Under the pieces are notes generated by a model that did no database searches, had not been told where the DNA came from, and saw nothing but the letters and a program-made list of their open reading frames with translations. Made by a program: the position numbers and the translations under genes. Shown here one piece after another: positions 2,366 through 27,265 of a stretch of 29,006 nt of DNA. Where the stretch lies: NCBI GenBank assembly GCA_900546915.1, contig UREY01000026.1, positions 1 to 29,006 on the forward strand, written 5' to 3'. The stretch's first letter is position 1, and the number at the start of each line of letters is the position of its first letter. The DNA is from an uncultured Eubacteriales bacterium (GTDB lineage Bacteria; Bacillota; Clostridia; Oscillospirales; Oscillospiraceae).

Positions 2366-2459
2366 TATAGTGGCTCAATTTTATGGCTAATATCGTGCGT
2401 ATATATGCACGAATGGCCGGTGCCACGTGAAATTCCATATAAAGAAAGGAGAAAACAAG

Positions 2460-5400
2460 ATGAAACGCATGTGGAAAAAAAGTCTAGCTTTCCTTTTGGT
2501 TATGCTGCTGGTGGTCCAGCTGCTGCCGATGGGAGCGATGGCGGCTGAAGACCATGCTGCACCGTCCGGTGAGACAGTGTTGGTAGATGCCGCTGACGAA
2601 AATTCCCAGAAGTTGACGAACCCGCTAGACGGGGACGCCGATGTGCAGATTGCCCCGGATGAGGTGGTCACATTCCTGGTAGAATTGGAGGCGGAGCCTC
2701 TAATTGCCTACCTGCAAGAGGACACCGATGTCGCGACGGCGCTGGCATCCTCCAACCTGACTGCAAAGCAGGCAGTGAATGATGCCCAGGGACAGGCGCG
2801 CCGGGAAATGCAAGCCTTGGATGGCCTGGAAATTCTGGATACATACAGCTTGCTGCTGAATGGCTTTGCAGTTTCCGCGCCCTATGAGATGCGGGATACC
2901 CTTGCAGCGTTGCCGGGCGTCCGGGCGGTAGAGATTGCGCAGACGTATGAAGCGCCTGAGACGCAAGAGAATACGGTAGAGTCTGATTTCAGCTCTGTGG
3001 GAGATATTGTAAACGCTTCTTCCGAGTATACAGGCGCCGGTACCCTGATCGGTATTCTGGACACAGGCCTGGATATTGACCACGAGGCTTTTGCCGCCAG
3101 TCCGGAGACGGTAGCGGTGACAAAGCGGCAGGTGGAGCTGGCGCTGGAGAATTTGGGTTTCAATGCGCAAGGTAGCGTGGATGATCTTTACATCAGTGAA
3201 AAGATTCCGTTCCAGTATGACTATGCCGATCATGACACGGATGTCAATGACAGCCAGGGCCATGGAACCCACGTAGCCGGTATTGCCGCCGCCGACTGTG
3301 AGACGCTGACCGGCATAGCGCCCGACGCGCAGTTGGCTATTTTCAAGGTGTTTTCCGATGTGGAAAGCGGGACCGGAGACGAATGGATTCTCCCGGCTCT
3401 GGAGGATGCAGTGAAGCTGGGTGTAGACGTAATCAATATGAGTCTGGGCTCTGCCTGCGGTTTTTCCTCTGAGGGAGAAATTATGGACCGGGTGTACAAC
3501 CGGATTGAGGACGCTGGGATTTCTCTGATGGTCGCTGCCGGTAACGACTGGACCTCTACGGAAAATCATCCCTATGGCCAGAAGTCTTTGGTTTCCAACC
3601 CGGATAACGCCATGGTGGGCACGCCCTCTACTTTAGATGCGGCTCTTTCTGTGGCGTCGGTGGAAAACGTCCAGAAGTATGTGTCCTATTTCCAGGTGGG
3701 GGATCAGAAATTTGAGTATTCGGATTCCAACGAAGGGGATATGGCCTTTACCAGCCTGGATGGAACCTATGAATATGTGGTAATTCCCGGGTATGGTGCG
3801 GACAGCGACTATACCGGTCTGGATGTGACGGGTAAGATCGCGCTGGTCATGCGCGGCACGCTCTCCTTTACGGAGAAGGAAGCTGCCGCAGCAAAAGCAG
3901 GCGCTGCCGGTTTGGTCGTCTATGATAACGCGCCGGGCGCTCTGTCACGGATGCAGGTGGAAGGCCTGATTCCGTCCTGCTTCATCACCTTGGAAAACGG
4001 CGACGCGATGAAAGCGGCTCAGGAGAAGTCTCTCTCCATCTCCCCTTCCATGTCTGATTTCATGGAAAACGAAGAGGCCGGGCAGATCTCTTCCTTCTCT
4101 TCCTGGGGACCTGGGACCAGCCTGACCCTGAAGCCGGAGATCACGGCGCCGGGCGGCCACATTTATTCCTCTTTGCCTGGCGGCGTATATGGGGATATGA
4201 GCGGCACGTCAATGGCTTCCCCCCAAATGGCAGGTATTGCCGCCGGCTTACGGCAGTATTTAGACAGCTCGGAAGACTTTGCGGATTTGAGCGAGTACCG
4301 AAAAGGACAACTGGCCGATGCGCTGCTGATGAGTACAGCCGTGCCTTTGGAGGATCCCGACGGCGTTTTGTATAGCCCCAGAAGTCAGGGCGCCGGTCTG
4401 GTGAATATGAATGGCGCGATTCAGACCCGGGCGTATCTGACCAATGATGACGGCGATATTGCCAAGGGTGAACTGGGCAGCTCCGAAACGGGTCGCTTTA
4501 CCTATTCCTTCTATGTCCACAACTTCGGCAGTGAAACGCTTCACTATCAGCTCAATACTTCCATATTGGTGCCCGGCTTCTATTACGAGGATGGCGTGGC
4601 ATTCATGAGCGACCAGGACCGCCTTCTGACGGAGCAGGAGTACAAGTTGACCTACTCCGGAGATGTGGATGCGGATGGAAAGCTCACCGTAGAACCCGGC
4701 AGCCGGGCCAGCGTGACGGTGCAGGTTGACCTGACGCAGACAGGAATTTCCAATCTGCAGGTTTTCTCCAACGGTATTTACGTGGAAGGCTTTGTCAATC
4801 TGGAGGCTCTGGATGCGGGCAGCGTCAATTTGGGTGCGCCGTTTTTGGGCTTCTACGGCAACTGGTACCAGGCGCCCATCCTGGAGCCGACCGTGTATGA
4901 GGACGAGACCCCGCTTACGGGAGCCACTCAGCTCGGACTGTTCAGCTATCAGGATGGCTCGGGCTTCCTGCTTGGACAGAATATGGTGACCGGGGAATTT
5001 GAAGAAAAATACAATATGGTATCCAGCCGCCAATTCTGCCTTGATTACGGTGTATCCGCTCTGGTGTATCAGTTGCGTAATGCAAAAACCTTGCGCTTTA
5101 CCGTTACCAAGGACGACACCGGCGAGGTGTATTATTCCAATGTGCTGGAGAATGCAATCAAGTCTACCTGGTGGGCAGACTACGGTCTGTTCTACTACAA
5201 TTCCGATTACCGGATGTGGGATATGACCTGTGAGTATGAGGGCGGCCTCATCAGCAACGTACCGGACGGCGCTTATACGTATACCATCGAGGCCCTGGGC
5301 GAAGGCGCCTCTGAGGAGGACGTACAGTCGGTCTCCATTCCCCTGACGGTGGACAGCGAAGGCCCGGAATTGCTGAGCTACGAAGCAGTGGAGGAAAACG

Positions 5401-8400
5401 GCGTCCGTTATCTGGATGTGGAGCTTTCGGATAATTATTATCTCATGGGTGTGCAGCTTACCGATGAAAACGGAGAGCAGGCTCTGTCTGAGGCCACCTA
5501 TTTGGCCGGCGATCAACCCGGCGAGACGGCGAAGTTGCGGTTTGACCTTACGACGGCTCTGCAGATGGGCTATACGACGGCCCGGGTGTATATGCTGGAC
5601 TACGCGTTCAATGAGGTTTTCAGCGACGTGGTGAGTCTGTCCGTCGGCGGCTTCCAGCCGGAGAGCATTACCATTAGCCCCAGCCAGATGGTGACCTCTG
5701 TGGGCACGACCTGGCAGTTTACCGCCACCGTAGAACCGGCGGAATATTTGACTGAGGAGCAGAAGCAGGTAACTTGGTCCGTCAGCGACGAGAGCATCGC
5801 TTCTGTGACGGCAGACGGTATGGTTACAGGCCTGAAGGAAGGCGACGTGACCTTGACGGCGACGGCGTCCAACGGCGTCACGGGAAGCACCTGGCTGCAT
5901 TTCTATCAGCCGGAGGAGGCGGAGTACATCCAGATTCCGGATCAAACGGAGTACACCATTACGGAAAGCGGCCTGTATCAATTGCCCGACGCGCAGTCCG
6001 CTCAGTATATGCATATCACCATTGATCCGGCGGCAACGGAGGTTACGCTGAAGGGTAATCCGGACGTTACTTATCAGGATCTGAAGGTTCACTGCCCGGG
6101 AACGGTGCAGCTGACCCTGCAGGATGTGCACATTGCCCTGGAGCTGGAGAGCTATGAGCATGGTACGGACTGGAATTATTACGGCGCCATCAATTTCCAA
6201 GCTATGGACAACATTCTCATTGTAAACGGAGAGAATTCCATTACGCGCAATGCCATGAACGCGGGGAATGTTTCGGCCATCTGCGTCCGGGCCAAGAAAA
6301 CGGAGATCAATTCCAGCGTGGTGTTTAACGGAACGGGAACCATGACCATTGATACGGAAAATCCCACGGGTCTGGCCACCTGCTATGCAGCTGCCATCGG
6401 CGGACGGCAGGGCGAGCGCACCGGCGACATGACCTTCAATGGCGGCACCTGGATCATCCGCGACAACGGCTTCGGCGCGGGCATTGGCTCCGGCAGCAGC
6501 AGCGGAAGCCAATATGACACGACCCTCTATACCTCCAAGGTGACGATCAACAACGGCACCTTTGACCTGGAGACCAGCCATGCCGCAACGGAGGTTGGCG
6601 CCTGCATCGGTACCGGCACCAGCGGCTATAACGGCGTAGAAGTTGTCATCAATGGCGGCGATATTACGGCCACCGCCTGGTATGGCGGCGCGGCCATCGG
6701 CTCCGGCATGTATGGACACAGCAGCTCCCATGCCTATGGCTCTTCCGGCCAGCCCACCAATCCCACCACGGTTACCATCAACGGCGGCACGGTTCGGGCC
6801 TATACCAAATATCATGAGGATGCCTCTGCCAAATCTCCCGGCGCAGCCATTGGATCCGGCTATCGGGCCGGCACGTATGTACCGGTTGCCATACATGGCG
6901 GCTGGGTCTATGCGGAGACCAACACAGAATCTGCAGCCATCGGCAACGGCATGTCCGATCGCTTTGAGAATGCAAGCATTACCATCGATGGCGGAACTGT
7001 GACAGCAGTGACGACAGCTGAGGGTGCGGCCATTGGCGGAGGCGGCGGAACCACAGCTTCCACGGCGGCTGCGGCGGGCATTGTGACCATTGCCGGCGGC
7101 TCTGTGAAGGCGGTTTCCACCGGAACCGGCGATGCTGTGGGCAACGCAGCCGGCAGTCAGAGCACCGTGCATGTCTGGAACAACGAATCGCTGCAGGTTT
7201 ATGAGGTACCCATCCCCTCGGCCGGTTGCGACTACCTGTTGCTGGACGGTCTGATGCGGTTCTCCGGCGATCATACCGATGATGAGAACCACTACCTGTA
7301 CCTGCCGGAAGGAACGTACTACGCTTTGGTATCCGGCGGCACATACGCAAATAAGAGCTATGATATAACGGTGACCCGGGACGGCGTGACGGTTCGGGAG
7401 CATGGATATGTGGAAGAATACAGCATCACCATGAACCTGACGAACCTGACCTCCGATGCTCCGTCCTCTGTGCAGGAGGGTGCGGATCTGTCCCTGACGC
7501 TGACGCCGGAGAAGGGCTACGGCCTGCCTGAGGCGATCCAGGTTACCATGGGCGGCCAGATGCTGCTCTCCACGCAGTATGACTATGACAACGAAACCGG
7601 TCGGTTTACCCTGGAAAATGTGACCGGTGACGTGGTCCTGACGGCGGTTGCCGTGGAAGGCGTGCAGACCTTCTCCGTCACGTCGGAGCTGGTTCACATG
7701 ACCTATGAGGGACCGGATTACGTCTCTGCCGGAAAAACCGCTTCCGGAAAGCTGATTCCGGATGAGGGCTATGAGCTGCCGGAGACCATTTCGATTACTA
7801 TGAACGGCCAGGCGGTTCAGGATTATACCTATGACCGTGACTCCGGTGCGGTTGCAGTGCCGAATGTGACGGGCGATGTGGTCATTTCCGGAATGGCCCA
7901 GCTTGCCGGCGGCAGAAGCATTACGTATGTGGTGACACACCTGACCCATGACGGTGCGGCAGAGTATGTTTCCGGCAGTGATTTGGAAATTCAATTCACC
8001 CCGGAGGAGGGCTATGTCCTGCCTGAAACGGTATCCGTGACGGGGGACCAGGAAATCATTCGTTACACCTACAACCCGGACACCGGCCTGCTGACGATCT
8101 TGCACGCCACCGGAAACCTGACCATTACGGCAGAGGGCGTTTCGGAAACTGCGGAACCGGAACCCATTGACACGACGGTTCTGGAGGCTCTGCTGGAGAG
8201 CACCAAGGAGGCTTACGAGCATCCCGAGGACTACGAAGCAGGCGAGGCGTACGACAACTTCCGCGCGGCCTATACGGCAGCAGCGGAGGTTCTGGAAGCC
8301 CCCGAAACCCAGGAGCAGGTGGATGAGGCAGTTAAAAATCTGCGGGAGGCGTTTGAGGCGCTGACGAAAATCTCCTATGCCGTCATCACCCAGGATTTGA

Positions 8401-9161
8401 AGGGTGTGACGTCCGATGCGCCCAAGCAGGTGCAGGTGGGAAGCGATCTGACCGTTCAGTTGACCGCTGACTCCGGATACCTGCTGCCGGTCAGCGTCAC
8501 GCTGTCTCCGGCAGAGGCCTTCCAGGATGCCGCCTATGATGCAGACACCGGAATTCTCACGCTGCAGGGTGTGACGGGAGATCTGACCATTGCTGCAGAA
8601 GGCGTACCGTTTGCTTATGCGGATGTGGCGGAGACCCACTGGTTCTATGACGAGGTTGCCTATGTGACCCGTTGGGGACTCATGAACGGCATGGAGAACA
8701 ACCGGTTCTATCCCAATAACTCCATGAGTCGTGCCATGGTTGCAACTGTGTTGTACCGTATGGCGGGTTCGCCGGAGGTGACGGGCACGACGCCCTTTAC
8801 GGATGTCAAGGAAGATCGGTATTATTCCGACGCCGTCGTTTGGTGCTATCAGAACGGAATCACCATGGGCGTGACGGAGACCAGATTTGGGGTCGACAGC
8901 ACGGCCAGCCGCCAGCAGGTGGCTACGTTCCTGTACCGCCTTGCTGATTTTATGGGATACGACGTCTCGGAAACCGGTGATTTGTCCGGCTTTGCGGATT
9001 ACGAAACTGTGAATCCTTACGCACAGACGGCAGTCAGCTGGGCTGTAGGCACGGGCTTACTGAAGGGTTTGGAGAACAACAGACTCTATCCCCGGAAGGA
9101 CTGCACGCGCGCTCAGACGGCTACACTTCTGATGCGGTTCTGTGAAATGATTATGCCGTAA
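2460..9161 (+). CDS. Secreted, S-layer-anchored multidomain subtilisin-like serine protease (peptidase S8)
   Basis: A 2,233-residue exported protease. Start at ATG 2460, with AGGAG eight bases upstream; an in-frame GTG at 2427 has no ribosome site. Order: signal peptide (1-28, AMA|AE), I9-like propeptide (~60-165), S8 catalytic domain with Asp201 (GILDTG), His268 (GHGTHVAG), oxyanion Asn362 (AAGND) and Ser584 (GTSMAS), and a protease-associated insert (~410-525). Then come C5a-peptidase-like beta domains (~670-1060), a Big_2 Ig-like domain (~1068-1149), a glycine-rich beta-solenoid-like stretch repeating AAIGSG and TINGGTV (~1310-1565), four ~75-residue beta repeats (1656, 1737, 1821, 1973), a helical FIVAR-like module (~1905-1970) between repeats 3 and 4, and three SLH modules (2051-2233). 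All triad residues are present, so it should be active. SLH modules normally bind pyruvylated wall polymer. Substrate unknown; a lactocepin/C5a-type surface protease is the best comparison. Confidence 0.95.
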   Translation: MKRMWKKSLAFLLVMLLVVQLLPMGAMAAEDHAAPSGETVLVDAADENSQKLTNPLDGDADVQIAPDEVVTFLVELEAEPLIAYLQEDTDVATALASSNLTAKQAVNDAQGQARREMQALDGLEILDTYSLLLNGFAVSAPYEMRDTLAALPGVRAVEIAQTYEAPETQENTVESDFSSVGDIVNASSEYTGAGTLIGILDTGLDIDHEAFAASPETVAVTKRQVELALENLGFNAQGSVDDLYISEKIPFQYDYADHDTDVNDSQGHGTHVAGIAAADCETLTGIAPDAQLAIFKVFSDVESGTGDEWILPALEDAVKLGVDVINMSLGSACGFSSEGEIMDRVYNRIEDAGISLMVAAGNDWTSTENHPYGQKSLVSNPDNAMVGTPSTLDAALSVASVENVQKYVSYFQVGDQKFEYSDSNEGDMAFTSLDGTYEYVVIPGYGADSDYTGLDVTGKIALVMRGTLSFTEKEAAAAKAGAAGLVVYDNAPGALSRMQVEGLIPSCFITLENGDAMKAAQEKSLSISPSMSDFMENEEAGQISSFSSWGPGTSLTLKPEITAPGGHIYSSLPGGVYGDMSGTSMASPQMAGIAAGLRQYLDSSEDFADLSEYRKGQLADALLMSTAVPLEDPDGVLYSPRSQGAGLVNMNGAIQTRAYLTNDDGDIAKGELGSSETGRFTYSFYVHNFGSETLHYQLNTSILVPGFYYEDGVAFMSDQDRLLTEQEYKLTYSGDVDADGKLTVEPGSRASVTVQVDLTQTGISNLQVFSNGIYVEGFVNLEALDAGSVNLGAPFLGFYGNWYQAPILEPTVYEDETPLTGATQLGLFSYQDGSGFLLGQNMVTGEFEEKYNMVSSRQFCLDYGVSALVYQLRNAKTLRFTVTKDDTGEVYYSNVLENAIKSTWWADYGLFYYNSDYRMWDMTCEYEGGLISNVPDGAYTYTIEALGEGASEEDVQSVSIPLTVDSEGPELLSYEAVEENGVRYLDVELSDNYYLMGVQLTDENGEQALSEATYLAGDQPGETAKLRFDLTTALQMGYTTARVYMLDYAFNEVFSDVVSLSVGGFQPESITISPSQMVTSVGTTWQFTATVEPAEYLTEEQKQVTWSVSDESIASVTADGMVTGLKEGDVTLTATASNGVTGSTWLHFYQPEEAEYIQIPDQTEYTITESGLYQLPDAQSAQYMHITIDPAATEVTLKGNPDVTYQDLKVHCPGTVQLTLQDVHIALELESYEHGTDWNYYGAINFQAMDNILIVNGENSITRNAMNAGNVSAICVRAKKTEINSSVVFNGTGTMTIDTENPTGLATCYAAAIGGRQGERTGDMTFNGGTWIIRDNGFGAGIGSGSSSGSQYDTTLYTSKVTINNGTFDLETSHAATEVGACIGTGTSGYNGVEVVINGGDITATAWYGGAAIGSGMYGHSSSHAYGSSGQPTNPTTVTINGGTVRAYTKYHEDASAKSPGAAIGSGYRAGTYVPVAIHGGWVYAETNTESAAIGNGMSDRFENASITIDGGTVTAVTTAEGAAIGGGGGTTASTAAAAGIVTIAGGSVKAVSTGTGDAVGNAAGSQSTVHVWNNESLQVYEVPIPSAGCDYLLLDGLMRFSGDHTDDENHYLYLPEGTYYALVSGGTYANKSYDITVTRDGVTVREHGYVEEYSITMNLTNLTSDAPSSVQEGADLSLTLTPEKGYGLPEAIQVTMGGQMLLSTQYDYDNETGRFTLENVTGDVVLTAVAVEGVQTFSVTSELVHMTYEGPDYVSAGKTASGKLIPDEGYELPETISITMNGQAVQDYTYDRDSGAVAVPNVTGDVVISGMAQLAGGRSITYVVTHLTHDGAAEYVSGSDLEIQFTPEEGYVLPETVSVTGDQEIIRYTYNPDTGLLTILHATGNLTITAEGVSETAEPEPIDTTVLEALLESTKEAYEHPEDYEAGEAYDNFRAAYTAAAEVLEAPETQEQVDEAVKNLREAFEALTKISYAVITQDLKGVTSDAPKQVQVGSDLTVQLTADSGYLLPVSVTLSPAEAFQDAAYDADTGILTLQGVTGDLTIAAEGVPFAYADVAETHWFYDEVAYVTRWGLMNGMENNRFYPNNSMSRAMVATVLYRMAGSPEVTGTTPFTDVKEDRYYSDAVVWCYQNGITMGVTETRFGVDSTASRQQVATFLYRLADFMGYDVSETGDLSGFADYETVNPYAQTAVSWAVGTGLLKGLENNRLYPRKDCTRAQTATLLMRFCEMIMP

Positions 9162-10860: not shown

Positions 10861-11196
10861 ATGGCTGTGGATAAGCTGGAAAAATTGATGTTTGAACTGG
10901 GGATCTATCAGTGCCAGGAGGGTTACGATTGTATTCTGGCTGCCATGGAGCTGGTAGTGGAGGATCCCAAACGGTTGAAACGCCTGACGAAAGTATTGTA
11001 CCCTCTCACGGCAGCCCGTTGTGACTGCGGCAGACCGAGTGTGGAGCGAAACATTCGAAGCTCCATTGCCAAGGGATGGGAGGCAAACCCCGAGGGCTTT
11101 TCTAAAATTGCCAGGCGTAAGCTGACGCAAGCGCCGACAACCGGGGATTTCCTTTGCATGCTGTATGAGTACCTGAAACAAATCAGAAACGGATGA
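10861..11196 (+). CDS. Stand-alone Spo0A C-terminal (DNA-binding) domain protein
   Basis: A 111-residue protein that aligns along its full length with the effector domain of the sporulation regulator Spo0A: helix ELGIYQCQEGYDCILAAM, then VVEDPKRLKRLTKVLYP, the recognition-helix region RPSVERNIRSSIAKGW, and the C-terminal NPEGFSKIARRKLTQAP...FLCMLYEYLK. In Spo0A these correspond to the LGIPAH.KGY, LYP and SRVERAIRHAIE.AW elements. The N-terminal phosphoacceptor receiver domain (~130 residues) is absent, so activity cannot be controlled by aspartate phosphorylation. The start ATG 10861 has AAGGAG seven bases upstream. It is preceded by ~240 bp of non-coding DNA with a possible weak promoter (TTGTGA 10797-10802, 19-bp spacer, TATTAT 10822-10827) and a near-consensus 0A box. 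Constitutive binding to, or competition for, Spo0A targets is inference. Confidence 0.85.
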   Translation: MAVDKLEKLMFELGIYQCQEGYDCILAAMELVVEDPKRLKRLTKVLYPLTAARCDCGRPSVERNIRSSIAKGWEANPEGFSKIARRKLTQAPTTGDFLCMLYEYLKQIRNG

Positions 11197-12817: not shown

Positions 12818-13951
12818 TCAATCCTCCTTAAACATAGGTAGAATTTTGGCGGGCATCTCATTTAAATCTTCTTTCTGCAGAACGTAGAACAGGTTGTTAT
12901 CAACCCAGAGTTCATAGGTGCCTTCATCAGTTTGAAGAATATATGCGTTTTCAGGAGTAATTTGGACGCAATCGGCGATTTCTTCTTCACGGGGATATCC
13001 GGCTGGTTGAAACAAGAAAAAATAAGATGACAAGAATAGGGCGATACAGCCCAATGCAATTGCTGTATGTGCCAAAGGTTGCTTGGGGCGGGGATTTTGG
13101 ATTGCTTCAAAGCGATTGCGCAAAAGAAGATCTGCTTGGGTGTACACCATATACGCATGCATACGAGATCGCTGTTTGCTTGACTGATCTTCTTTGAGTA
13201 GATTTATGTAGCTCAGAATGTGAAGAATCGAAAGTAAGTATACTTGCGTTTCGGCTTCCGAATAACCCTTTGTCACGAGGTAATCACAGCGAAATTCCAA
13301 GAGAGCACCCAGCTTTTTAGCAACCCGATGCATGTAAGGATTCCAGCAGCAGACAGCCTCCAGTAGCAAATACAGAAACTCAATCCAGATGTCGCCGTTC
13401 CGGATATGCTGGCGCTCGTGTTTGAGAATCCAAATCCATTCTTCGTGTGGTAAACTGATGTCGGGCAGATAGATTTTAGGCCTAAAAAGTCCAATGACGG
13501 CAGGTGTTCCCACCTGCGGTGAAACGATAATTTTTTTGGGTGAGATGTTGAGGGCAGAAGCAGCGCGTAAAACCTGATCATTCTGTACATGGATCCAACC
13601 GCTTCGGATCCGTTTGTCCCGAATTAAATAGGACGCCTCTCGAATCAGTACAGCGGCCCCTCCCCCTAGCCAAATCAAGACCACCAGGCCCCAGACGGGC
13701 ACGATCCTAAAAAGCTGAAAATTCAGGATCTGCTGTAGAAACCGCAGAATGTGGCGGGAATGGATTACCAGAAAGCAGGAGGAATCCAACGGGAAGAATA
13801 CCCGAATTCCCGCCAAAACTGCCAAGGCGCCCAGGAGGGCAGGGCTGTATCGCATTACAATTCTCTCGTGTGACTGGATTAGAGCAACCAGCACTAAGCC
13901 GATGTTAAACCAGACGACCGCGTTGAGAAATGAATATACGCTGAAACTCAT
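12818..13951 (-). CDS. BlaR1/MecR1-type M56 membrane metalloprotease lacking the beta-lactam sensor domain
   Basis: 377 residues. N-terminal membrane helices (~7-25, 35-52, 83-104) precede an M56 domain with the zinc motif HERQH (178-182) and a plausible third ligand Glu219 (ALLEFRCDYL), 37 residues on, as in BlaR1. A last membrane helix (ALGCIALFLSSYFFLF) leads to only ~65 extracytoplasmic residues ending near LYVDN-type beta segments. BlaR1/MecR1 are nearly 600 residues, with a penicillin-binding-like sensor of ~250; that domain is missing here, so beta-lactam sensing through it is not possible. The start ATG overlaps the stop of the BlaI gene (ATGA, 13948-13951), with GGAGGAAAG upstream. 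By family analogy it would cleave or trigger cleavage of the adjacent BlaI-type repressor on an envelope signal. The signal is unknown. GC is visibly lower than in flanking genes. Confidence 0.9.
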   Translation of the reverse strand: MSFSVYSFLNAVVWFNIGLVLVALIQSHERIVMRYSPALLGALAVLAGIRVFFPLDSSCFLVIHSRHILRFLQQILNFQLFRIVPVWGLVVLIWLGGGAAVLIREASYLIRDKRIRSGWIHVQNDQVLRAASALNISPKKIIVSPQVGTPAVIGLFRPKIYLPDISLPHEEWIWILKHERQHIRNGDIWIEFLYLLLEAVCCWNPYMHRVAKKLGALLEFRCDYLVTKGYSEAETQVYLLSILHILSYINLLKEDQSSKQRSRMHAYMVYTQADLLLRNRFEAIQNPRPKQPLAHTAIALGCIALFLSSYFFLFQPAGYPREEEIADCVQITPENAYILQTDEGTYELWVDNNLFYVLQKEDLNEMPAKILPMFKED

Positions 13952-14328
13952 TTATCGAGTTCTTTCCTCCGCGCTTGCAGCATTTCCTCCAACTCATCCA
14001 ACAATGCGGGGGTAACGCCTTCGCTGTTGACCAAACCGGCGAACAGCCGAGACAATTGGGCGCTGTCTTTCCGGTTGAACAGGTTGCCGGCAAAGTAGGC
14101 TTCCTCAGAAATGGCAGGGGTGAACACGCGACCGTATCCCTTGCCCCGGCGCACGAAGCCGGCTTCCTGAATGGCCTCCTTCTTCAGCATGCTGTTCAGC
14201 AGGATGTGGACAGAGCTGTCTTTCCAGGTTTTGTCCTGGGAACGGGCGATGATGTCCGCGCGGCACAAAGGCTCGTCTGCGGCCCACAGCACTTCCATGA
14301 TTTCTAATTCGCTTTTTGTCAGTCTCAT
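13948..14328 (-). CDS. BlaI/MecI/CopY family transcriptional repressor
   Basis: 126 residues. The N-terminal winged helix reads LTKSELEIMEVLWAADEPL, then DIIARSQDKTWKDSSVHILL with recognition helix, NSMLKKEAI and wing GKGYGRVFTPAIS, all typical of BlaI/MecI. The helical C-terminus (~75-126) is the dimerisation region where BlaI proteins are cleaved. It is the first gene of the operon, overlaps the M56 protease by 4 bases, and starts at ATG 14328 behind AAAAAAGGAGG. It probably autoregulates: the promoter just upstream overlaps an imperfect GTATAT/ATGTAAC-type dyad. Pairing with a protease that lacks a penicillin sensor suggests envelope-stress or peptide control rather than beta-lactam resistance. 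Confidence 0.92.
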   Translation of the reverse strand: MRLTKSELEIMEVLWAADEPLCRADIIARSQDKTWKDSSVHILLNSMLKKEAIQEAGFVRRGKGYGRVFTPAISEEAYFAGNLFNRKDSAQLSRLFAGLVNSEGVTPALLDELEEMLQARRKELDK

Positions 14329-24004: not shown

Positions 24005-24376
24005 ATGCAGTTGGATTACCGAAATACCCGGCCGATTTACATGCAAATTGTGGAGCAAATCCGGCAGAAAATCCTGGCCGGTGTTTTGGCGGAGGGAGAG
24101 CAGCTTCCATCGGTACGGGAGATGGCGATGGAGCTGGCAATCAATCCCAACACCATGCAGCGCGCCTACCGAGAGCTGGAGGTCCAGGGCTGGATTTATT
24201 CCGTCCCCGGTAAGGGGTCGTATGTCTGCGACATTGCCCGGGCGGGCGCGGCCCGCTGCAAGGAGCTGCTTGCGTCGCTGGACCGTTTGGTGGCGGAGCT
24301 GGTGTCTCTGGGCTATGACCGGGAGCAGGTGATCCGGTATTTGAACAGTCAGGAAGGAGGCGGCGGATGTGATTGA
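24005..24376 (+). CDS. YtrA-type GntR family transcriptional regulator
   Basis: 123 residues. An N-terminal GntR winged helix (PIYMQIVEQIRQKILAG, LPSVREMAMELAINPNTMQRAY, then the ELEVQGWIYSVPGKGSYV wing) is followed by a short helical tail of ~50 residues. This is the compact YtrA subfamily rather than FadR/HutC. YtrA regulators normally repress their own operon together with an ABC exporter, exactly the arrangement here. ATG 24005 has only a weak ribosome site (GGTGA). The end overlaps the GTG start of the ATPase gene by 8 bases. In Bacillus the ytr operon responds to cell-wall antibiotics that bind lipid II; the same signal here is inference. Confidence 0.92.
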   Translation: MQLDYRNTRPIYMQIVEQIRQKILAGVLAEGEQLPSVREMAMELAINPNTMQRAYRELEVQGWIYSVPGKGSYVCDIARAGAARCKELLASLDRLVAELVSLGYDREQVIRYLNSQEGGGGCD

Positions 24377-25262
24377 GGCAAAGCAGCTGATCAAGCAGTT
24401 TGGAAAATTGCGGGCGCTGGATGGACTGAGCATTCAGGTGCCGGAGGGCTCCATATACGGCCTCGTGGGGCCGAACGGAGCGGGGAAATCTACCCTTATT
24501 CGCTGTCTGACCGGGGTTTACCGGCCGGAGCAGGGAGCCGTTACCCTGGACGGCGAGCCGGTTTGGGAAAATCCTGGGGTAAAAAGGAAAATGGCCTGCA
24601 TCCCGGATGAAATATTTTATTTTCCTCAGGCCTCGATCGCCGGCATGGCGGACTTTTACGCGGGAATTTACCCCACCTTTGACCGGGAGCTCTTCCGGCG
24701 GCTGGGCCAGGTGTTTGAGCTGCCTAAGGGAAGTCCCATCCGCCGGTTTTCCAAGGGAATGCAAAAACAGGCGGCCTTTTGGCTGGCCATTTCCATCCGC
24801 CCGGAGGTTTTGATTTTGGATGAACCGGTGGACGGCCTGGATCCGGTGATGCGGCGGCAGGTTTGGCAATTGCTTTTGTCGGACGTATCTCAGAACGGCA
24901 CGACGGTTCTGGTATCCTCCCATAATCTGCGGGAGCTGGAGGATGTTTGCGACCGGGTGGGCATTGTGGATCACGGAAGAATGCTTTTAGAGCGAAGCCT
25001 GTCGGAGCTGCAGGAGAACATCGTCAAGGTGCAAATGGTACCGGCAGAGGGGAACGGACTTCCGGATGGCCTGAAGGTGGTACATCAAAGCCAGGCGGGA
25101 CGCTTGCTGACCTTGGTGGTGCGTGGCAGCGGGGAAGAGATCCGGGCGACCCTGGAAGCCGCGAGCCCGGTGTATTTTGATTTGCTCCCGTTGTCTCTGG
25201 AGGAGATTTTTATTTATGAGCTGGGAGGTGTCAGCCATGAAATCCGGCAGATCATTCTGTAG
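24369..25262 (+). CDS. ABC transporter ATP-binding protein (YtrB-like)
   Basis: 297 residues. Walker A GPNGAGKST (34-42), Walker B VLILDEP (147-153) with catalytic Glu152, D-loop GLD and H-loop His185 (SSHNL). The ABC signature is FSKGM (127-131) rather than LSGGQ, as is usual for YtrB/BcrA-like exporters. The residue at the usual Q-loop position is also unusual (CIPDEIFYF). The ~80-residue C-terminal extension is typical of this group. GTG start at 24369 with GGAGG upstream, translationally coupled to gntR. It overlaps the permease start (25237) by 26 bases. It should energise the permease encoded next, which is currently frameshifted, so its function in this genome is uncertain. Confidence 0.93.
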   Translation: MIEAKQLIKQFGKLRALDGLSIQVPEGSIYGLVGPNGAGKSTLIRCLTGVYRPEQGAVTLDGEPVWENPGVKRKMACIPDEIFYFPQASIAGMADFYAGIYPTFDRELFRRLGQVFELPKGSPIRRFSKGMQKQAAFWLAISIRPEVLILDEPVDGLDPVMRRQVWQLLLSDVSQNGTTVLVSSHNLRELEDVCDRVGIVDHGRMLLERSLSELQENIVKVQMVPAEGNGLPDGLKVVHQSQAGRLLTLVVRGSGEEIRATLEAASPVYFDLLPLSLEEIFIYELGGVSHEIRQIIL

Positions 25263-26965
25263 CATCCCCATTTTTCGCAAGAATTGCGCCAGATTTTGGC
25301 CGCTGTGCGGTGGATTTTTCCTACTTTTGACGGTTTATGTACTCCGGTTTGCCGACGGGGGGGCCGGGCATGACGTCTTCCCCGGCTGCGAATTTTCTGG
25401 ATTCTGTCAATGGAATGATGATAGCCTGGCTTCCCTTATACGGACTGATGTGCGGTGTGCTCTTTCTGGGATATCTCTTCCAGACGGGCAGCACCCAGGC
25501 ATACCACAGCATGCCGCTGAGACGGGGGACCCTGCTGGGTACGGCGATCCTCTCCGGTCTGGTGTTTTTGCTTGCGCCTCTGGCGTTGGCGGCAGCGCTG
25601 GCTTACCTGCTGATTCCGGGCTGTACCACAGAGCCCCTGGAGTGGGCGGCGGTTTTGGGCATCGTGTCTTTTTATGCGTTTGCTCTGAGTTGCCTGTCGG
25701 CGGTTTTAACCGGCACGCGTCCCGGAGCGGTGCTGGTCTTTGTGGTCTTTTTAATCGGCGCGCCCAGCCTGGAGGCCATGGGAAAGGCGGCTGTATTGCC
25801 CCTTCTGCGGGGCCTGGTATATCCCGGTACGGTGTTGCGGTGGCTCTGCCCACCCATCATGCTTTTGGAGCTGGCCGATGTGGTGGAGGGACATTTTGCC
25901 CTCCGCCTCTGGCCGTACCTAGCCGCCGTGGCCGGAGGGGCCTTGGCGTTGCTTGGCCTGGCGTGGTTTTTGTACCGCCGCCGGAAAAGTGAAGGAGCCG
26001 GGGATTTTGTAGCCGCCCGGTGGCTGCGGCCGGTCATACGGTATGGGCTTACATTTTTAGGCGGCCTTGGTCTGGGAGAGCTTCTTTCTCTGCTGTTAGG
26101 CGGGGAATGGAAGGGGGAGCTGGGCGCTACGATGGTGTTCCTTCTGACGGGCGTCCTGGTAGCGCGGCTGACGGCGGAAATGCTGCTGGCCCGGTCTGTC
26201 CGGGTATTTCAGGCCCGGCGGCTGGTCAGCTATGGGCTGTGCCTGGCGCTGACCGGCGGCGCGCTGCTGGCAGTGGACGGGGATATTCTGGGCCTGGAGA
26301 CCCGCATTCCGGCTCCGGAGCAGATCTCCCAGGCCACCTTGTCGGTCGGAGTGTACCCAACCGGCGCGCCGGTGTCGGATCCTGAGGAGCTGCGGGAGAT
26401 TACGGAGCTTCATCGGTTGGTGCTGGAGCACCAAAACGGACAGAAGGGGAAAACCTGCAGGGCGTATTTTTCTTACCGTCTGACCGGAGGAGAAACGATG
26501 ATTCGCCAGTACCGGCTCATTTTTTCGGGGCAGGAAATGGCCCAGGAAAACGGCTTGTACCGGAAGCTGTCGGAATTTTTCCACCGGCCCGAGCAAGTGT
26601 TAGCTGGTTTGGTGGGGCCGGATGCGACGCAGGAGGAGCTGAGGCAGCAGATTGTGAGCTGTGCGGTGTATGACGGAAGAGGTGAGCCGGTGGATCTCAC
26701 CGGTAACCTGGACTCCCTCCAGGCCAGAGAGCTTTGGGACCGGGCCTGGCAGGATATCTGCAACGGCGATCTGTATTTGGACGACGGCTACGGGATGGAC
26801 GGCTCCTTTGGTGCAATCACCCTGGAGTTTCAGCTGCAGGAGCGGGCGGGCGAAGTTGCGCCCCACGCGTCTATTTACCTGGAGCTGTTGTCCGACAGTC
26901 GGAATACGATGGAATATCTGACCGGATTGGCGCAACATGAAACGGCCGGCGCATCGGAAAGATGA
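25237..26965 (+). pseudogene. ABC-2 type permease of the gntR operon, frameshifted at a G7 run
   Basis: The reading frame opens at ATG 25237 (GGGAGGTG six bases upstream, within the end of the ATPase gene) with MKSGRSFCSIPIFRKNCARF and WPLCGGFFLLLTVYVLRFAD. This is the expected N-terminus and first membrane helix of such permeases. After the G7 run (25357-25363) this frame loses similarity, while the next frame continues as GPGMTSSPAANFLDSVNG and a normal permease: about eight further helices, then a ~210-residue extracytoplasmic domain (from ETRIPAPEQISQ) to the stop at 26965. Total length is 3n+1. Removing one G restores a continuous ~575-residue protein. The ATG at 25337 lacks a ribosome site and the first helix. 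It could be a mutation, a slippage-based on/off switch, programmed frameshifting or a sequencing error. Confidence 0.8.
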
Positions 26966-26992: not shown

Positions 26993-27265
26993 ATGTATGT
27001 ATCAATTGGAGGAGATATGGCCATACGAACCAGCTCCTTAATTGGAATTTTTGATTTGGATCAAACGACGACTTCCCAAATCACCCGCCGGTTTTTGCAG
27101 CAGGCAGAGCGGGAGGGACAGGTGGTCAGTACGGCGGAGGATCTTCCCAAGACCTTCCTACTCACCAGCGAGTATGGACTGCCGCGGGTTTATCTCACGC
27201 AATGGAATGCGGCGACTCTGGAGAAACGGCTGGGCGTACGGGCCGGAGGTCCGGAAACCCGGTAG
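26993..27265 (+). CDS. remB: RemB-type DUF370 regulator
   Basis: 90 residues. MYVSIGGDMAIRTSSLIGIF, DLDQTTTSQITRRFLQQAE, DLPKTFLLT and VYLTQWNAATLEKR match the RemB/YaaB branch of DUF370. Related RemA binds DNA as a ring and activates biofilm-matrix genes in Bacillus; RemB has a lesser-known role in the same process. Start at ATG 26993 with GGAGG upstream. It follows the permease by 27 bases, so it may be cotranscribed with the gntR-ABC operon. The C-terminal GVRAGGPETR is a short extension beyond the conserved core. It converges with dapF, with no clear terminator in the 23-bp gap. Confidence 0.88.
   Translation: MYVSIGGDMAIRTSSLIGIFDLDQTTTSQITRRFLQQAEREGQVVSTAEDLPKTFLLTSEYGLPRVYLTQWNAATLEKRLGVRAGGPETR

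What the first reader, a model, noticed from the sequence alone, without database searches (positions are those of the whole stretch)
25237..26965. ABC permease split by one extra base in a G7 homopolymer
The N-terminus and first helix are in one frame from ATG 25237, with a strong ribosome site. The rest of the permease is in the next frame after GGGGGGG at 25357-25363. Deleting one G fuses them into a standard-length permease. All neighbouring genes are intact. A homopolymer inside an exporter of a YtrA-type operon could be a slippage-based on/off switch, a programmed +1 frameshift, a fixed loss of function or an assembly error.
Basis: seen in the sequence. Interest (0 to 1): 0.7.

Follow-up and report, generated by a model that had tools for sequence, protein, structure and literature searches.

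The report
Transporter gene broken by one G
One membrane gene of an ordinary three-gene transporter operon from a gut-type bacterium carries one G too many, so it reads as two pieces, while a near-identical database copy is whole; this looks like a private mutation or a sequencing slip, not a genetic switch.

Summary
G7 at 25357-25363 splits an ABC permease: the native start (ATG 25237) and first helix lie in one frame, the remainder in the next. It is the window's only G/C run of 7 or more. A whole protein, P0002 (582 aa), differing at one residue in the body, exists in public data. The four database clusters of this gene found to cross the tract all read in six-G phase, so among the sequences seen G7 is in this window alone. 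71 of 71 distinct homologues examined are open from the ATG-25237-equivalent start to a stop, with no G/C run above 6. Nothing found supports a switch or programmed frameshift: no other tract length, no conserved tract, no significant RNA fold. Most likely it is a recent private +1 slippage mutation that inactivates the permease (about 0.5); an assembly error is next (0.34). Against error, 92 other homopolymers of 5 or more lie in 21 open ORFs of the window. For error, other records of this gene carry homopolymer breaks elsewhere. Reads over the tract would decide. Interest is low.

The parts
24005..24376 (+). GntR-family regulator (YtrA-type operon layout), first gene of the operon, open
   Evidence: 123 aa; Pfam GntR E 3.9e-17; NCBIfam hits all below their cut-offs (best 25 of 31 shown)
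24369..25262 (+). ABC transporter ATPase, open; overlaps the permease start by 26 nt
25237..25992 (+). N-terminal piece of the permease from its native start: connecting helix and first membrane helix in frame up to the tract, off-frame after it
25357..25363 (+). G7 homopolymer at which the frame changes
   Evidence: six-G phase implied by P0002, P0011, P0012 and P0013
25337..26965 (+). Rest of the permease (542-aa ORF in the next frame); no recognisable ribosome site before ATG 25337
26993..27265 (+). RemB-like small protein gene downstream, open; operon membership not tested
   Evidence: NCBIfam NF046065 score 49 against cut-off 40; Pfam RemA-like 26.3 against 26

Best explanation
A recent, private one-base gain in a G-run (six to seven, by replication slippage) in the sequenced strain or in the sub-population that was assembled. 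It puts the body of an ABC-2-type exporter permease out of frame, so the operon makes its regulator and ATPase but no working permease. Shown: one base more than the relatives' proteins imply, the loss of frame, the presence of the first helix in the homologues examined. Inferred: that the base is really in the DNA, that it arose by slippage, that it is recent, and that the permease is non-functional.
For: Whole near-identical protein P0002. Six-G phase in all four other clusters seen to cross the tract: P0002, P0011, P0012, P0013. 71 of 71 distinct homologues examined are open from start to stop, with no G/C run above 6. At protein level the window differs from P0002 only by this base and one residue, which suggests a recent event. 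The window's consensus looks good elsewhere: 92 homopolymers of 5 or more lie inside 21 open ORFs, 20 of them with Pfam matches. The change is a gain; in one long-read case study it was the deletion errors that went with homopolymers, while insertion errors were not tied to any particular homopolymer (PMC12007338, passages). The model of P0002 places the tract at a low-confidence loop (residues 50-52) right after helix 28-46, and the exporter folds listed align from residues 2-15 on, so a product begun after the tract would lack core fold.
Against: No reads, no second genome of the same species and no DNA behind P0002 were available. The broken run is the window's longest G/C run, where error is also most likely. 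Other clusters of this gene (P0012, P0014) carry homopolymer breaks at different places, as sequencing error would give. The 21 ORFs were listed because they are open, so that control is partly circular; the homologues were best matches, which favours whole genes.
Confidence: 0.5

Rival explanations
1. Assembly or consensus error: the real DNA has six Gs and the permease is whole.
For: The four other clusters of this gene seen to cross the tract are all in six-G phase. It is the longest G/C run of the window. P0014, on a 288,893-nt contig, implies two separate one-base losses in five-base runs within about 450 bases, and P0012 a two-base loss in a T5, so public records of this very gene do carry homopolymer breaks.
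Against: 92 other homopolymers of 5 or more in 21 ORFs of the window are in frame, including six runs of 7 and one of 8, all A or T. The change is a gain, whereas deletions were the errors tied to homopolymers in one long-read case study (PMC12007338, passages).
Confidence: 0.34
2. Phase-variable switch: slippage in the G-run turns the permease on and off in the population.
For: A seven-G run in M. tuberculosis glpK is described as a phase-variable site (PMC11898584, passages), so length 7 does not exclude it.
Against: No phase other than six in the four other clusters. Longest G/C run in 71 distinct homologues is 6, anywhere in the gene; within nt 60-240 of the gene only 1 of 73 loci, L039, has a run of 6. 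Five G/C runs of six lie in other ORFs of the window, all in frame. One library search for Oscillospiraceae, phase variation and homopolymer together found 0 papers.
Confidence: 0.1
3. Programmed +1 frameshift or transcript slippage at the G-run, or a second start (such as ATG 25370, six bases after the G-run), makes a useful protein from the split gene.
For: The G-run ends six bases before ATG 25370 (sequence) and could act as a weak ribosome site; that pairing is inference.
Against: RNA fold around the tract is not significant (z -1.0; 31 of 200 shuffles fold at least as well). 0 of 71 distinct homologues examined are split. The near-identical relative is whole.
Confidence: 0.04

Closest known systems
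Whole permease P0002 (same gene, near-identical)
   Same: Same protein over both pieces; one residue differs in the body, 534 of 535 identical
C. difficile ClnRAB and B. subtilis YtrGABCDEF operons
   Same: GntR regulator with ABC transporter genes; ClnRAB has the same gene order, and its regulator was placed in the YtrA subfamily by its authors (PMC6117091, passages; PMC12772383, abstract)
   Different: Sequences were not compared here; inducer and function of this operon are unknown; the ytr operon has more genes
ABC-2-type exporters: mycobacterial efflux pump 8k1n and the membrane chains of NosDFY
   Different: 14-17% identity; the C-terminal part of the permease is not covered; best Foldseek E 3.6e-3; a shared fold shows no function
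M. tuberculosis glpK seven-G phase-variable tract
   Same: A G7 in a coding gene whose length change breaks the frame (PMC11898584, passages)
   Different: There the indels recur across clinical isolates; here one sequence only

Membership tests
Phase-variable (contingency) homopolymer locus | Tract length differs between strains or cells, toggling the frame | tested here: inconclusive
   Six-phase in 4 of 4 other clusters seen to cross the tract, seven in the window only; no reads, and cluster members beyond the representatives not seen
Phase-variable (contingency) homopolymer locus | Unusually long or conserved tract at the site | tested here: not met
   0 of 71 distinct homologues examined have a G/C run above 6 in the gene; runs of 7 or more expected per window by third-order simulation about 1.6
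Programmed +1 frameshift | Split layout conserved in relatives | tested here: not met
   0 of 71 distinct homologues examined are split; P0002 is whole
Programmed +1 frameshift | Stimulating RNA structure | tested here: inconclusive
   z -1.0 for 25300-25420; pseudoknots not tested
Frameshifted pseudogene | Intact homologue spanning both pieces in one frame | tested here: met
   P0002 and 71 of 71 distinct homologues examined
Frameshifted pseudogene | The break is present in the DNA of the organism | not testable with these tools
   No reads, and no genome held for the window
YtrA-type GntR and ABC operon | Short GntR regulator followed by ABC ATPase and permease | tested here: met
   GntR 123 aa and ABC_tran by Pfam, permease after them; same order in G515
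YtrA-type GntR and ABC operon | Regulator belongs to the YtrA subfamily of GntR | not tested
   No YtrA subfamily model or reference sequence was compared
ABC-2-type exporter permease | ABC-2 membrane-domain fold | tested here: met

The most novel reading that the evidence does not exclude
This exporter permease is repeatedly knocked out in nature by independent short-run indels: a gain in the G-run here, a two-base loss in a T5 in P0012, one-base losses in a G5 and a T5 in P0014. The gene would then be a target of recurrent, possibly reversible inactivation in this gut-type species, with regulator and ATPase kept.
Probability: 0.07. Interest if true: 0.45.

Novelty: new member of a known kind. 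Interest (0 to 1): 0.12.

Why it matters
As it stands it matters little: one broken copy of an uncharacterised exporter whose whole form exists. It is a fair example of how a single homopolymer base can be mistaken for a switch. It would matter if reads showed mixed tract lengths, or if several strains had independently broken this permease.

Tried and rejected
Own genome: none is held. Same-species DNA: in genome contigs 138 stretches matched a pattern of the permease but none was confirmed, and a profile search there gave 16 loci at 27-30% identity only; viral contigs gave none, plasmids no match. 106 of 136 genomes of G317's genus matched the ATPase-permease DNA, best 73% and over the ATPase alone. 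Genomes of the family beyond those drawn were not searched with DNA. So the tract could be compared at DNA level in no second strain.

Homologues that start at the 25337 frame: none among those examined. The stops reported by the genome search inside many homologues looked at first like recurrent readthrough; where the loci were examined (23 of 73 with a stop) they lie upstream of the native start, at residue 3 or 6 of P0002.

What was dropped before the counts: of 82 loci held, 9 had no permease hit (fetched with HisS), 73 had one, 71 of those distinct. Loci fetched later (L083-L094) are not in that count; of these L093/L094 (G515) have an open permease frame, the others were not examined. 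The 73 are the tools' best matches, out of 281 matching of 400 family genomes, 76 of 101 and 46 of 61 (largely the same genomes), plus the named loci; bias towards whole genes is possible.

P0002's cluster stands for 131 members, but only the representative was seen; the window's own 542-aa ORF may be a member, so 131 is not counted as 131 whole copies. P0011 is an off-frame ORF call and is used only for tract phase; why its true frame was not called is unknown. A profile search of solved structures by sequence found none. Papers seen as search listings only: and the rest of 37; passages of PMC5084427 were not used.

Full report
What is there. At 24005-26965 on the + strand lies a three-gene operon: a GntR-family regulator, an ABC ATPase and a permease, followed by a RemB-like gene and, on the other strand, DapF and BioY genes. 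The permease is split. From ATG 25237 the frame codes a connecting helix and the first membrane helix, meets GGGGGGG at 25357-25363, and continues off-frame to 25992; the permease body is open in the next frame to 26965.

Relatives of the same gene. A protein search with the body found P0002, 582 aa, identical at 534 of 535 residues over the body and carrying both pieces in one frame, and P0003, a 40% identical protein. A search with the off-frame product found four more clusters. Mapped piece by piece on the window, P0012 and P0013 cross the tract in the same whole frame as P0002, and P0011, an ORF in another frame, also implies one base fewer than the window. So four of four other clusters of this gene that cross the tract are in six-G phase; P0014 does not reach it. 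P0012 is broken later, at the T5 at about 25748-25752 (two bases missing). P0014 is broken twice, at the G5 at about 25524-25528 and the T5 at about 25967-25971 (one base missing each), on a contig of 288,893 nt (places read). Two one-base losses within some 450 bases look like sequencing error in that record; this is inference.

Distant homologues. The window's species was not found in the collections searched. By its HisS the nearest of 400 family genomes drawn is unnamed G317 (84% identity); named loci with permease homologues are labelled Oscillospiraceae, Oscillibacter, Flavonifractor or Clostridiales. Permease homologues were found in 281 of 400 genomes of the family and 76 of 101 of G317's genus. 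Of the 82 loci held, 73 carry a permease, 71 distinct proteins: all 71 are open from the ATG-25237-equivalent start to a stop, 540-682 aa; all 71 have GGAGG within 20 nt upstream of that start; the longest G/C run in any of these genes is 6. This supports ATG 25237 as the native start, shows that the first helix belongs to the family, and gives no sign that the tract is a family feature. In G515 the same operon has GntR 60%, ATPase 73% and permease 31% identical, with an open permease frame: there the permease has changed much faster than its ATPase.

Mutation, error or switch. For a real mutation: within 24,070 bases of 21 other ORFs, 92 homopolymers of five or more are in frame (65 of five, 20 of six, six of seven, one of eight), so the assembly is not generally homopolymer-damaged, though these ORFs were chosen because open. 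Also the change is a gain, while in one long-read case study deletions were the errors that went with homopolymers and insertions were not tied to any particular homopolymer (PMC12007338, passages). For error: the run is the longest G/C run of the window, and other public records of this gene carry homopolymer breaks. For a switch: only the precedent that a G7 in M. tuberculosis glpK is phase-variable (PMC11898584, passages). Against a switch: one phase outside the window and no conserved tract. Against a programmed frameshift: no split homologue among 71, and no significant RNA fold.

Known context. GntR regulators with ABC transporters are known: ClnRAB of C. difficile, a regulator, ATPase and permease operon induced by LL-37 (PMC6117091, passages), and the B. 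subtilis ytr operon, induced by inhibitors of the lipid II cycle (PMC12772383, abstract). Similar layout does not show similar function, and no sequence comparison with them was made.

Verdict. Observation confirmed; a switch or programmed frameshift not supported; a private loss-of-function mutation or an assembly error, in that order, and reads over the tract would separate them.

Noticed in passing
12818-14328 (-): BlaR1-like M56 peptidase gene next to a Penicillinase_R (BlaI-type) repressor gene, with a 4Fe-4S protein gene beyond.
   Followed up: no
10861-11196 (+): A 111-aa protein whose only Pfam match is the Spo0A C-terminal domain, positions 8-105; no room for a receiver domain.
   Followed up: no
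2427-9161 (+): 2244-aa subtilase with PA, fn3-like, Big_2 and SLH domains; a 1459-aa open frame (4260-8639) lies antisense to it, probably a composition shadow.
   Followed up: no
25216-25262: The permease ribosome site lies within the last codons of the ATPase (ELGG), an overlap kept in the homologues examined; gene callers can pick a probably false upstream start there, as in P0002.
   Followed up: partly
L093 (G515) versus window 24369-26965: ATPase 73% but permease 31% identical in the same operon: strong contrast in rate of change.
   Followed up: no
   Followed up: no
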